From: Halichondria panicea
Taxonomy: Eukaryota > Porifera > Demospongiae > Suberitida > Halichondriidae
DNA: 64,000 bases
Reading direction: 5' to 3'
Assembly: GCF_963675165.1 (NCBI RefSeq)
Contig: NC_087391.1
Coordinates: 3,336,646-3,400,645 of the forward strand
Part shown: positions 59,473 to 63,667 of the stretch, piece by piece
How the letters are laid out: each line of letters opens with the position of its first letter
Numbering within the stretch: the first letter of the stretch is position 1
The notes under the pieces: generated by a model
What the model was told of the DNA's origin: nothing
Seen by the model: the letters and a program-made list of their open reading frames with translations, nothing else
Database searches by the model: none
Position numbers and translations under genes: made by a program

Positions 59473-59703
59473 TAATGAAGGTTATTTTCAAAATTCCTTT
59501 TGACAGAGATATAATCTTAACTAAACTTCAATGATTTAACACGTTTCATGCACATTCCAAAACGTCATTGGAATTATCAGGTTTCTAACTCCGAAACAAA
59601 ACAGGAAACCTGATTTACACGTTTCCTTAGACATTTCAGGTCACAAAATGCAAAGGAAATACATCTTTTTTTCTTGTGCATGCTGCATTTAAATGAGCAT
59701 TCC

Positions 59704-59908
59704 TGATCAGTGTATTAAAGCGGCCATTCTAGAATGTCTGTGTTTTTTGCCAAAAAGTCAGGAAATTAGGGAGTGCTTGCATTTACCAATTTCTGGATTC
59801 TTAAATCTTTAAATTTCCATTAATGCGAGTTTCCAGAACTCAACGTTTCCTGGTATTTTGAAAACACGAGGGGGAGAAATTTTAACATTACAACCCCTGT
59901 GGCAGTTA
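59704..59908 (+). repeat. Left terminal inverted repeat of the two-gene element
   Basis: Starts TGATCAGTGTATTAAAGCGG and contains the palindrome CATTCTAGAATG. Reading inward it matches the reverse complement of 63307-63510 with only a few substitutions and a 2-bp indel. Confidence 0.9.
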
Positions 59909-60237
59909 TAAGTTTGTGCAATAGGTGAATAATTGTATACCAGTCATATCTCCTGTTTGGAACATTTCTAAGATAATGTGCTGATACCATTGTGTATATT
60001 TCCATAGCAACATAGGGTGGTGGGTTTGTGGTAGAACAGCAAAAAAAATTGGTAATCAGTTATAGGGAGAGAAAAGACCATGCAACGGTTTCCAGCCAGG
60101 TCTGGGACTTTGTCACAATGTCTATAAGAGTTTGGCTATCTTATAATTATGCAAGGTTCAATCTTGCTTACATATCTACACATCCCCCGCAGTGCTCAAA
60201 ATTGTTAGCCCGTTTCAGTTGAAAGGCTGTGAAGTTC

Positions 60238-60285
60238 ACATAATAATAATAATAACAAGAATAAGAATAAGAATAAGAATAAATG
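60238..60285. repeat. (ATA)n and (GAATAA)n microsatellite
   Basis: ATAATAATAATAATAA followed by AAGAATAAGAATAAGAAT, just beyond the stop of the RING-like gene. Confidence 0.85.
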
Positions 60286-60356
60286 CATGAAACAAGAGTA
60301 TACATATACTCTTGATGAAAACACAACAGGGATACAAGTTCACCAATAAATGTTCA

Positions 60357-61647
60357 TTAGTCAGAGCTTGACAATGGAGAAGGCGTATGCTTTCGAAGAA
60401 ATTCTTGGAAGCTTCTTACAAGGGGTAACTTTGGGCAGTCCTTGAGAGTCAAAGAGGCACGACAATGTGGGCAGGTTGACTGGGCCTCCAGCCATTGTGC
60501 CACACACACCTCACACCCCAAAATAACAACAGGGAGACACCACAGCTGGGAATGATGTCTGAGACTTGCATACGAGGCATTCGAATACAGTTTTATCCAT
60601 AGTGCCTAGGGAAGATGGTGCCAATGGTAGAGACATTTTTTTTGCTCTGTGCTGTGGGGCAAAATCAAAATCACTATCAGAGCTCGAGTCCAAGGAAATA
60701 ACCCTTCCTTTCTTTACTTCAGATTTTCTAACGGCTCGAATACGTTTGGAGGTTTTCCAAAACCTTGATCCTGGATAGAGAAAGTAAGCACTAGTAATGG
60801 CATAATCAGTAACTGCTGAATTAACAAGTTATTAAAGAGTCAGCACAATGAATACATCGAGCTTCTTACCTCGAGTAGTAGAAGTATTCGGTATCTTCAG
60901 GTAGTCTATGTCCATAAGTACGCATTCTTCACCATTGAATAGCTCGTCACTAACCATCTTCGACACATTTGGAACGCTGGCAATTTCCTCAGAAAGGTCG
61001 ATGGGGACATTGCTCACTTTCTTCCATTGTTTATCAGCTTCATTCCATTTGCACACCTCAATATACTTTCTCCATTCGGGACGGCTGCTAGAACTTGAAG
61101 ACATTGTGGAAGGGCCTGCACCATCAACACTCGGTTCAGCTCGAGCTCGAACTCCAGGTGGCTTCTGTCCTGAGGCAGAGCTTGCACCTAGCAAGGCTGA
61201 CGTGAACTTTGGACTCCATTTTGGCGGTCGTCCTCTTTTTCGTGATGTTGCTTGTGATGTTGCTTGTGAAGGAGGCTGGTAAGAGAAAGAGGCTACTTGC
61301 TGGTCTTGAGGCAAACCATCTGCCTTGAGCGAATCCCCGTTCACAACCCACTTTGATAGGTCATCTACATCAAGAAACTTTCCCTCATGGTCTGGTGTTT
61401 CCACAAACCCATCGTCAGAAATCAAAATAATGGAATCGGGGAACAGTCCAAACACTTTACCAATAACTTGAGTAGTTAGCTGTGATGGTTTGAGCTTCAC
61501 GGTTTTGCCATCTTTCTCTATGGTATACAGGCTGTAGTTGTACAAGTTGCTTACACTCGAACTCATGTTCCTAGGCCCTTCTTTCACGGTATCAGCGCAG
61601 CATAGAGCTAAATAGAGAGGACACTTGCAATTTTGTGCCCAGGCCAT
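60357..61647 (-). CDS. RING-like finger protein of the TIR element
   Basis: Two exons: 60870-61647 and 60357-60770, joined in frame by a 99-bp GTAAGA-CAG intron. The start could also be the Met at 61566 (MSSSVSNLYNYSLY). The N-terminal 100 residues (YSLYTIEKDGKTVKLKPSQL, LFPDSIILISDDGFVETPD) form an unrecognised domain. Next come a basic GRPPK AT-hook-like motif (SRKRGRPPKWSP), a Ser-rich linker and, in exon 2, an acidic Ser patch. The C-terminus has ECLVCKSQTSFPAVVSPCC, then GCEVCVAQWLEAQSTCPHCR, a Cys-rich RING/U-box-like finger. A one-base frameshift near 60517 separates the two halves of the finger, so this copy is damaged or mis-assembled. RING proteins are commonly ubiquitin ligases; that role here is inference. 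Confidence 0.7.
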
Positions 61648-61767
61648 GTGCTTTTGACCGTATGTTGATCTACATGTAGATTTATCTATTTAAAAAGCAA
61701 TCGCAAAATATTTATTAGGCTAGGGTGCGGCTAATTCGAATCCAGGCGTGTATCGAGGCTAAGAAGG

Positions 61768-63241
61768 ATGGATGTGGATGAAGTGTTTGAAATGGTTACA
61801 AGTGGTATGACCCACGAAGATATAAGTAATACACTCAAGACCCGCTTTCCAGGAATAAGAGGCTTCTCTGCAAGAAGTGTTCGGCGATTCTGCTCTGAAA
61901 ATGGCATTCATAAACCAGATTCTGCTCAAGTAGATGCTGTAGTCGAATGTGCTGTTACTGAAGTAAGCTAAACGTAGTATAGGGCTTAATACTAAGAATA
62001 TTACCGTAGCACCGGAGAATACAGTCCATGTGCGTAATTAGCTAAGTACCACAAAAAACATTTCTAAATTAATTATGACTTGCAGGTTGGACATGTGTAT
62101 GGCCGGAGAATGTTAAAGGGTGTGCTTGAGTCTAAAGGTATTAAGGTATCTGAGAAAAGAGTTTCAGAGTCCTTACAGAGAGTGGCCCCTTTGCAATATG
62201 ATCAGCAGCGGAATGACACCTTAGACCGTACTAATCCACTGCAATACTCGGCTCTCCACTTTGGGCATAAACTTCATATTGACCAAAATGAAAAGATCAC
62301 AATGTTTGGTGCTACCCACATAGTTGCAAGGGATGGATATTCAGGCAAGATAATTGCTTACTGTACAATGCCAGTCAAGAACAATTTGGCTATATACGAC
62401 AGTATTTTGAGGTATTGTTCAACTCATTGAATAATAGTTACATCAGTAACACGTATAATTTCCATATCAGGTCATCTACTAAAACGTATGGTCTTTGGAA
62501 GCAAATTCGAGTCGACCATGGAAGAGAATTTTATCTTCTTTTGTATGTACAAGAAGCACTTCGTTGTCGTGTTGGCCCTCGGGATATTCTTCCTTACGTT
62601 CAATCTCCTTCAACAGAAGTAAGGGTACTGATATTGCTTACATGCATTAACTTTTCTCTCTACAGAACCACACTGTTGAACGCATTTGGGTTGAAGTAAA
62701 TTCTCGTATTAACTACCCCCTAAAGCGACACTTGATATCAATGGAAGCTACTAATCTGATTAACATGAGTGATGAAACTACAAAATTTTGTGTTTCGTTT
62801 GTTACGTGCAATGTTGCTTATCATGGATTATCATTGTTTGTTGCAGCTTGGAATCATCATTCTATACCAGGTAAATGTAATGACATTATTATTGATGACA
62901 CATGCGCTATTATAATATGTGATACAGGTCGAGGAGTACCCAATCATTTGCAGGTGCAGCGTTATGAAACTATACCCATTCCAGATGGGGAAGTACCGGG
63001 TACTGATGAAGCTGCAGATGCATACCGTTCTCAAGGTGGTCAGCTAAGAGAGTTTGGACTTTTTGGTTGCGATCCACTCAAGGATCGACAGGATCTAATT
63101 ATGAAAAGGGAGCAATATTTCCTCTCTCGCTGTCGTTTTGGGGACATCTTTAGTAATGTGGTATCAGGAAATGGACAAGCATATTCATATGCAATTGCTG
63201 AGTTCATTAGAATAACGAACTCTCTAGAAGCTTATCTATAG
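61768..63241 (+). CDS. Integrase-like DDE transposase, five exons, 392 aa
   Basis: Exons 61768-61962, 62086-62411, 62471-62618, 62666-62870 and 62937-63241 total 1179 nt and read through without a stop; introns are 123, 59, 47 and 66 bp with GT-AG ends. N-terminal helix-turn-helix-like region: MTHEDISNTLKTRFPGIRGF, SARSVRRFCSENGIHK. Then VGHVYGRRMLKGVLESKGIK (IS3-OrfB-like). Core: HKLHIDQNEK (first Asp), GYSGKIIAYCTMPVKNN, WKQIRVDHGREF (second Asp), STENHTVERIWVEVNSRINY (Glu). C-terminal RGVPNHLQVQRYETIPIPDG. Uncharacterised proteins of this kind occur in corals, fish and other animals. It is bounded by the TIRs and is the best candidate for an intact transposase in the window. Confidence 0.88.
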
Positions 63242-63306
63242 TCTAAGAGCCATTTTACTTGCTCATAATCATTATAGAGTGTTTAACATTAACTGAGTAC
63301 TACAAG

Positions 63307-63510
63307 TTAACTGCCAGGGGTTGTAATATTAAAATATCTCCCCCTCGTGTTTTCAAAATACCAGGAAACGTTGGGTTCTGGAAACTCGCATTAATGGAAA
63401 TTTAAAGATTTAAGAATCCAGAAATTGGTAAATGCAAGCACTCCCTAATTTCCTGACTTTTTGGCAAAAAACACAGACATTCTAGAATGGCCGCTTTAAT
63501 ACACTGATCA
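63307..63510 (-). repeat. Right terminal inverted repeat of the two-gene element
   Basis: Reverse-complement partner of 59704-59908. The transposase stop codon lies only about 66 bp inside it. Confidence 0.9.
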
Positions 63511-63667
63511 TTCCTGGTGGGGTTCATATTTAATACCCTGATATTACAATATTGCTGACCACACCATTATGTAATTTTCGACAATCATTACCTACTTAGC
63601 TCAAAAAAGTCTGCTTGCTTACGGCCTCGAGTAGTGGGGTTTTGGGGTTTAACTATAAACAAATTTA

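What the first reader, a model, noticed from the sequence alone, without database searches (positions are those of the whole stretch)
59704..63510. Transposon carrying a divergent integrase and RING-like gene pair
About 204-bp inverted repeats with TTCC on both sides enclose two head-to-head spliced genes: an intact DDE integrase-like gene and a gene ending in a RING-like finger with an AT-hook-like motif. Ginger-type elements are known to carry extra domains such as PHD, OTU or Ulp1. A separate RING partner, conserved as a two-gene module, is not something I know to be described. The partner could modify host factors or aid targeting (inference).
Basis: partly seen in the sequence, partly recalled or inferred. 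Interest (0 to 1): 0.92.

Follow-up and report, generated by a model that had tools for sequence, protein, structure and literature searches.

The report
Sponge transposon with ubiquitin-ligase-like partner gene
In a sponge genome a recently active jumping gene carries, back to back with its integrase, a second gene for a probable ubiquitin-tagging enzyme, and a distant relative of it in the same genome carries a different kind of ubiquitin-tagging enzyme, which suggests that these elements use the cell's protein-tagging system.

Summary
The genome matches Halichondria panicea (sponge). The element is 59705-63509, flanked by a 6-bp duplication (ATTCCT), not TTCC. Eight near-identical copies were found; all 8 carry both genes, 7 keep both ends, and all 7 show a 6-bp duplication; paralogous empty sites exist for 4 of the 7, one of them diverged. 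The integrase is open in 7 of 8 copies, the RING gene in 7 of 8; the window copy's RING gene is the broken one. Divergent relatives repeat the head-to-head pair; one (C10) is a complete second element with the same GATCAGTG ends. Of 11 merged partner loci, 11 lie beside an integrase; a later search found one more partner piece without a listed integrase. It is not Ginger1; it resembles IS3EU/GingerRoot but has GA..TC ends. Another integrase class here has a HECT-type ligase gene, tail-to-tail (30 of 74 merged integrase loci; RING 11; both 0). Best reading: the partner is an accessory E3 ubiquitin ligase co-expressed with the integrase. E3 activity and substrate are inferred. My literature searches did not find this combination described.

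The parts
59705..63509 (.). complete transposon, 3805 bp
   Evidence: boundaries from 7 end-complete copies and paralogous empty sites for 4 of them
59699..59704 (.). 6-bp target site duplication ATTCCT, left
63510..63515 (.). 6-bp target site duplication ATTCCT, right
59705..59907 (+). left terminal inverted repeat, begins GATCAGTG
63309..63509 (-). right terminal inverted repeat, 98% identical to the left
61768..61962 (+). integrase exon 1 (HTH-like by eye)
62086..62411 (+). integrase exon 2, holds catalytic D131
62471..62618 (+). integrase exon 3, holds catalytic D189
62666..62870 (+). integrase exon 4, holds catalytic E228
   Evidence: Pfam rva_4 PF24764 matches residues 128-290
62928..63241 (+). 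integrase exon 5 with stop
60870..61566 (-). partner gene exon 1: two conserved domains without a Pfam name, basic stretch with AT-hook-like core
60357..60770 (-). partner gene exon 2: acidic/serine stretch and RING finger; frame broken here by a 5-bp deletion between 60525 and 60526, open in the 7 other copies
61567..61767 (.). 201 bp between the two start codons (shared bidirectional promoter inferred; the public partner model starts further upstream)

Best explanation
This is a recently mobile DNA transposon of the sponge. SHOWN: 3.8 kb, inverted repeats of about 200 bp ending GATCAGTG..CACTGATC, 6-bp target duplications, eight near-identical copies at different sites, an rva_4-type DDE integrase gene and a divergent RING-finger gene that travels with this integrase lineage. 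INFERRED: the integrase moves the element with cuts staggered by 6 bp; both genes are switched on together from the short gap between them; the RING protein is a nuclear accessory E3 ubiquitin ligase that acts with the integrase, most likely ubiquitylating the transposition complex or host chromatin/repair factors at the element ends so that insertion or the repair after it succeeds. The main comparative argument is that another integrase class in the same genome carries a HECT-type ligase gene in the partner position; RING and HECT folds share little except ubiquitin transfer (established knowledge).
For: Copies, ends and duplications. Empty sites for 4 of 7 end-complete copies. Integrase open in 7 of 8 and partner open in 7 of 8 copies. 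Second complete element (C10): 87-bp inverted repeats, same GATCAGTG ends, duplication CTTCAA, integrase 46% identical, head-to-head RING gene, both open. 11 of 11 merged partner loci beside an integrase, all head-to-head; a 12th pair at C6:6897440. RING passes Pfam cut-offs in the C10 relative and in P0151. Exon-1 domains and RING conserved across mostly unnamed homologues. dN 0.30 against dS 1.76 for the second partner domain, C10 versus C16. HECT beside 30 of 74 merged integrase loci, each with a tail-to-tail one, none also with RING. Bao et al. 2010 (PMC2836005, passages) suggested from OTU and Ulp1 domains that the ubiquitin pathway takes part in transposition.
Against: No activity shown. 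The RING has an unusual spacing (PCC, with no histidine in family 1) and stays below the Pfam cut-off in the window family (25.2 against 27.3). The exon-1 domains match nothing known and could make this a DNA-binding subunit. dS was saturated in 4 of 5 comparisons. 33 of 74 merged integrase loci show neither partner by the count (one of them, C6:6897440, has partner pieces). The divergent pairs at C9, C16 and C6 look decayed: in C9 the finger lies in another frame than the sequence before it, and C16 has a stop in exon 1. Partner-like pieces at C12:3465498 lack a listed integrase. Integrase fragments at C15:3297346 and C14:4034770 had no detectable partner, nor had two sponge contigs, L075 and L076. 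No partner homologue appeared under a named animal other than H. panicea (in one search only 8000 candidates were scored).
Confidence: 0.58

Rival explanations
1. The partner is a structural or DNA-binding subunit of the transposase (compare the Myb-like protein of Harbinger, recalled, or RAG2): it binds the repeats or chromatin, and the RING only folds or dimerises. (The odds given here overlap with those of the best explanation; a subunit could also be a ligase.)
For: Two conserved exon-1 domains of unknown fold, basic patches, coiled coil by eye; one-to-one pairing and close divergent starts. The conserved part is larger than the finger.
Against: AT-hook mostly not conserved; a HECT-type gene, not another DNA-binding protein, holds the partner position in another integrase class.
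Confidence: 0.27
2. The partner is a counter-defence ligase: it marks host silencing or restriction proteins for degradation and is not needed for the transposition chemistry itself. (Overlaps with the best explanation in that the protein is a ligase.)
For: Two ligase types beside integrases; fungal IS3EU elements carry TET/JBP genes thought to counter methylation, and alpha-kinase genes (PMC12730594, passages).
Against: No substrate known; co-conservation with one integrase lineage fits a direct partner equally well.
Confidence: 0.25
3. The RING gene is a captured passenger with no role.
For: Broken in the window copy; decayed in the C9 relative; shorter derivatives keep only weak remnants of the RING exon.
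Against: Present in 8 of 8 copies and in divergent lineages with integrases 36-46% identical; open in 7 of 8 copies and in C10; dN well below dS in the one comparison that could be measured.
Confidence: 0.05
4. It is a Ginger1 element.
For: Integrase-like DDE core; repeat length within the 40-270 bp given for Ginger1.
Against: 6-bp duplications that are not CCGG/CCGT, no TGTNR end, no HHCC finger found, no GPY or GPF string by reading.
Confidence: 0.02

Closest known systems
IS3EU / GingerRoot DNA transposons
   Same: Integrase-like DDE transposase without HHCC finger, 6-bp duplication; fungal IS3EU with TET/JBP also carries an alpha-kinase gene in opposite orientation to the transposase (PMC10045372 and PMC12730594, passages)
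   Different: Ends GA..TC instead of TA..TA (occasionally TG..CA in GingerRoot); RING-finger partner; no Repbase sequence available here for a tree
Ginger1
   Same: Integrase-related DNA transposon; ubiquitin-pathway domains (OTU, Ulp1) on its transposase (PMC2836005, passages)
   Different: 4-bp CCGG/CCGT duplications, TGTNR ends, zinc finger and GPY/F motif; protease domains on the transposase, not a separate ligase-type gene
RAG1-RAG2 / Transib / Chapaev
   Same: DDE transposon lineage with a RING finger (RAG1 and two Chapaev subgroups) and, for RAG, a two-gene unit (PMC4411706, passages)
   Different: Other transposase type (recalled); RING fused to the transposase. That 2015 paper says RING and Chapa were not known in any other transposable element; a 2019 table lists a C3HC4 RING finger for one Mutator-like element (PMC6446971, one passage)
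HECT-partnered integrase elements of the same genome (found here)
   Same: rva_4 integrase, 6-bp duplication (CTGGTA in the one element read), ubiquitin-ligase-like partner gene
   Different: TA..TA ends, partner tail-to-tail and HECT, integrase about 25% identical, set apart with 100/100 support in an unrooted 33-row tree that holds one HECT-type row

Membership tests
Ginger1 | 4-bp CCGG/CCGT target duplication | tested here: not met
   6-bp varied duplications in 7 of 7 end-complete copies; definition from passages
Ginger1 | TGTNR 5' end | tested here: not met
   GATCAGTG in 7 of 7
Ginger1 | HHCC zinc finger and GPY/F motif in the transposase | tested here: not met
   Pfam at E up to 10 gives only rva_4 and a weak HTH_21; C/H positions listed; no GPY or GPF string in the 395 aa, by reading
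IS3EU/GingerRoot | 6-bp target duplication | tested here: met
   definition
IS3EU/GingerRoot | TA..TA termini (TG..CA occasionally in GingerRoot) | tested here: not met
   GA..TC in both RING families with complete ends
IS3EU/GingerRoot | no HHCC motif upstream of the core | tested here: met
IS3EU/GingerRoot | transposase groups with reference IS3EU/GingerRoot proteins in a tree | not testable with these tools
   no Repbase sequences at hand; a GingerRoot paper looked up by recalled DOI is not held
RING-type E3 ligase | Pfam RING match above cut-off, partner family | tested here: met
   zf-C3HC4_3 30.8 (cut-off 27) and zf-RING_2 27.7 (27.3) in the C10 relative, zf-RING_2 28.7 in P0151; 4 other members scanned were below
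RING-type E3 ligase | Pfam RING match above cut-off, window family | tested here: inconclusive
   best 25.2 against 27.3 for an intact copy; eight cysteines in RING order by reading
RING-type E3 ligase | E2-dependent ubiquitin transfer | not testable with these tools
   needs a bench assay

The most novel reading that the evidence does not exclude
Integrase-type DNA transposons of this kind generally work with their own ubiquitin ligase: one lineage (GATCAGTG ends, head-to-head) uses a RING protein and another (TA..TA ends, tail-to-tail) a HECT protein, taken up independently, which makes ubiquitylation of the complex or its target a general step of their life cycle and predicts such partners beside the related coral and fish integrases.
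Probability: 0.42. Interest if true: 0.86.

Novelty: new variant of a known kind. Interest (0 to 1): 0.72.

Why it matters
Bao et al. 2010 proposed from OTU, Ulp1 and other domains that the ubiquitin pathway takes part in transposition (passages). Here two different ubiquitin-ligase-like folds sit as partner genes beside integrases in one animal. The RING family is young and nearly uniform (four of seven end-complete copies identical between the ends), so the proposal can be tested with natural proteins. It also adds an integrase-type lineage to the few transposons said to carry a RING finger: RAG1/Chapaev and one Mutator-like element.

Tried and rejected
Ginger1 membership was rejected on duplication, ends and motifs. 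A 4-bp duplication with T..A outermost bases was rejected: those bases are absent at the left end in 5 of the other 6 end-complete copies and the empty sites fit 6 bp. AT-hook targeting was weakened by lack of conservation. The window copy's own empty site was looked for and not found. Partner or integrase contexts elsewhere: viral contigs gave none (partner; integrase); genome contigs gave 2 contigs filed under sponge-symbiont MAGs, with integrase pieces and no partner. The integrase had no PDB match by sequence. The exon limits were off and were replaced. One search was a wrongly recalled DOI that returned an unrelated porcine paper. The catalytic spacing D57D38E was not used for classification.
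Full report
What is there. The window lies on contig C15 of a 131-Mb assembly. Its contigs C1 (18138809 bases) and C15 (5981790) have the lengths listed for Halichondria panicea proteins identical or nearly identical to the two genes. The genes correspond to the public models LOC135351363 (integrase) and LOC135349419 (partner), both called uncharacterized. The species name rests on this match of lengths and proteins.

Boundaries. A search with the 204-bp left arm found 15 arms, all at 8 loci that also hold the integrase and the partner. Seven copies have both ends. The conserved sequence begins GATCAGTG and ends CACTGATC, and the flanks are 6-bp duplications in 7 of 7: ATTCCT (window), AATATT, ATGTTG, CAGCTA, CCCCTG, CTCTGC, TGCACA. 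The eighth (C6) lacks its right end and holds a 940-bp insert. Paralogous empty sites were found for 4 of the 7. For C1 the site holds the hexamer once and differs at one of 106 bases; for C12 it holds the hexamer once and matches except for a 12-base length difference downstream; for C9 it matches at 106 of 106 bases and holds CAGCTA twice in tandem where the filled site holds it three times, a net gain of one; for C17 the site is diverged (90%) and its own six bases differ at two positions. The window copy gave no empty site, and for C5 and C2 no match crossed the junction.

Age. In the alignment of the seven end-complete copies, leaving out the first and last columns, which proved to be target sequence, four (C5, C9, C2, C1) are identical over about 3.8 kb; C17 has one substitution; the window copy has one substitution and a 5-bp deletion; C12 has two substitutions and three indels. 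C6 is identical to C1 over its two main matching blocks (3218 and 359 bp). This points to very recent movement; I give no date.

Integrase. 395 aa, five exons, GT-AG introns; Pfam rva_4 PF24764 at 5e-16 and a sub-threshold HTH_21; D131, D189 and E228, of which the two D are invariant and the E at least 90% conserved in a 21-row alignment that includes it. It is open in 7 of 8 copies; C12 is frame-shifted. Of 226 relatives found, the 120 listed include named sponges, corals, sea anemones, a hydrozoan, a hemichordate and fish.

Partner. 371 aa in six copies and 365 aa in C12, which has an in-frame deletion; the window copy is broken; so it is open in 7 of 8. It has two conserved domains in exon 1 that match no Pfam family above cut-off, a conserved FWK(T/S) motif opening exon 2, an acidic serine stretch, a region that looks like a coiled coil by eye, and a RING-like finger with the pattern C-x2-C .. 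PCC .. C-x2-C .. CPHC. The RING match is 25.2 bits against a cut-off of 27.3 in family 1 and above cut-off in 2 of 6 relatives scanned, C10 and P0151. The start codons of the two genes are 201 bp apart; the public partner model starts 27 residues further upstream.

Conservation of the pair. The partner query gave 23 matches, which I merged into 11 loci after dropping one weak match (C3:801291, E 0.63); 11 of 11 lie beside an integrase, all head-to-head. They are the 8 copies plus C10, C9:4588352 and C16. C6:6897440 adds a twelfth pair, with partner exon pieces found by other queries. The C10 locus is a complete second element, 3937 bp, with 87-bp inverted repeats of the same GATCAGTG type, duplication CTTCAA, and open integrase and partner frames. 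C9, C16 and C6 look decayed. Against strict pairing: a later query with the C10 RING exon (53 matches, most of the weak ones probably ordinary RING proteins) found partner-like pieces at C12:3465498-3465789 (E 4e-12 and 3e-9) and C9:3031541 (E 3e-6) with no integrase match listed nearby; the first lies about 0.6 kb from a C10-type end. Integrase fragments at C15:3297346 and C14:4034770 had no detectable partner. An identical C10-type pair, P0046 and P0138, is listed with the same longest contig length, 800893, in another data set, which suggests but does not prove adjacency there. dN is 0.30 and dS 1.76 for the second partner domain between C10 and C16; the other four comparisons (three of the partner, one of the integrase) had saturated dS with dN 0.33 to 0.68.

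A second ligase type. A class of integrases about 25% identical to this one lies beside a gene with HECT matches (in L068: C-terminal piece 25.5 bits, cut-off 23.9; N-terminal piece 17.9, below cut-off). The one element read in full (L068:292-6309, 6018 bp) has TATGAGG..CCTCATA ends and a 6-bp duplication CTGGTA, that is, the TA..TA and 6-bp features given for IS3EU. I merged by hand the 112 integrase matches into 74 loci and the 103 HECT matches into 55 entries, of which one locus was entered twice (54 loci). Of 74 integrase loci, 30 have a HECT within 4 kb, each with a tail-to-tail one (two also have a same-strand one), 11 have RING, none has both, and 33 have neither, C6:6897440 among the 33; 33 of 55 HECT entries (32 of 54 loci) are near an integrase. 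Counts are lower bounds because the genome search scores only the best candidates. In a 33-row unrooted tree a HECT-type and a partnerless integrase of this genome separate from the other 31 rows with 100/100 support. Family 1 does not group with C10 and C9; the fork that sets these apart has 83/89 support, so an ancestral RING partner is only suggested.

Mechanism. Shown: copies at different sites, ends, 6-bp duplications, paired genes. Inferred: integrase-catalysed movement, joint expression, nuclear E3 activity of the partner. I prefer a ligase to a pure DNA-binding subunit because ubiquitin transfer is what RING and HECT proteins share (established knowledge), and because OTU and Ulp1 domains occur in Ginger1 transposases and a BTB domain in one hemichordate rva_4 protein model. 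Fungal IS3EU elements with alpha-kinase and TET/JBP genes show that such elements can carry modifying enzymes. The order of rivals: DNA-binding subunit, counter-defence ligase, passenger; the odds overlap.

Place among known kinds. IS3EU/GingerRoot is closest in duplication length and lack of an HHCC finger, but the ends are GA..TC in both complete RING families, while complete IS3EU families are said always to have TA..TA (PMC10045372, passages). I therefore call it IS3EU/GingerRoot-like and do not file it as a member. In print: full-text searches for IS3EU with RING finger, IS3EU with HECT, and DNA transposon with HECT, ubiquitin ligase, integrase and transposase returned no paper. Three wider searches returned 2, 4 and 3 papers; I read passages of PMC4411706 and PMC6446971 and saw the others only as listings. 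The library lacks many journals, Repbase is not held, and the GingerRoot paper that I looked up was not held, so novelty is not proven.

Derivatives. The C10-type arm matches 54 places, and at least 8 pairs of arms lie 1.6 to 2 kb apart. Of two pairs checked at their ends, both have 6-bp duplications, AAAAAT and GTAATA. Weak RING-exon matches (E 0.0005 to 0.0054) lie inside 8 of these 8 pairs, so they look like shortened relatives.

Noticed in passing
G000:C7:6696291-6702308 (L068:292-6309) and 30 of 74 merged integrase loci: A second integrase class carries a HECT-type ubiquitin ligase gene tail-to-tail with the integrase; the one element read in full has TA..TA ends and a 6-bp duplication.
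   Followed up: partly
L057 left end (C9 copy) and L079 (G000:C6:4576973-4577017): An extra GATCA stands between the target duplication and the element's end in two insertions, one with family-1 and one with C10-type ends; unexplained.
   Followed up: no
G000:C12:4841162-4842762 and at least 7 similar pairs: 1.6-2 kb stretches with C10-type ends in inverted orientation and weak RING-exon remnants, probably non-autonomous derivatives.
   Followed up: partly
G000:C12:3464815-3465789: A C10-type end and RING-exon pieces without a listed integrase match nearby.
   Followed up: no
P0104, Ptychodera flava protein model: A 482-aa model joins a BTB domain to an rva_4 integrase; BTB proteins are often ubiquitin-ligase adaptors (recalled). 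It may be a gene-model artefact.
   Followed up: no
L075, L076: Contigs filed under bacterial symbiont MAGs of sponges encode pieces of this animal-type integrase, so they are probably sponge DNA contamination.
   Followed up: partly
L060, C1 copy flanks: This copy sits in a stretch that reads as the start of another open frame (by eye) with a paralogue at C1:9685217.
   Followed up: no
P0001 and window 62928 onward: The public integrase model (isoform X2) uses a later acceptor for the last exon than the one given here, which suggests alternative splicing or a model choice.
   Followed up: no
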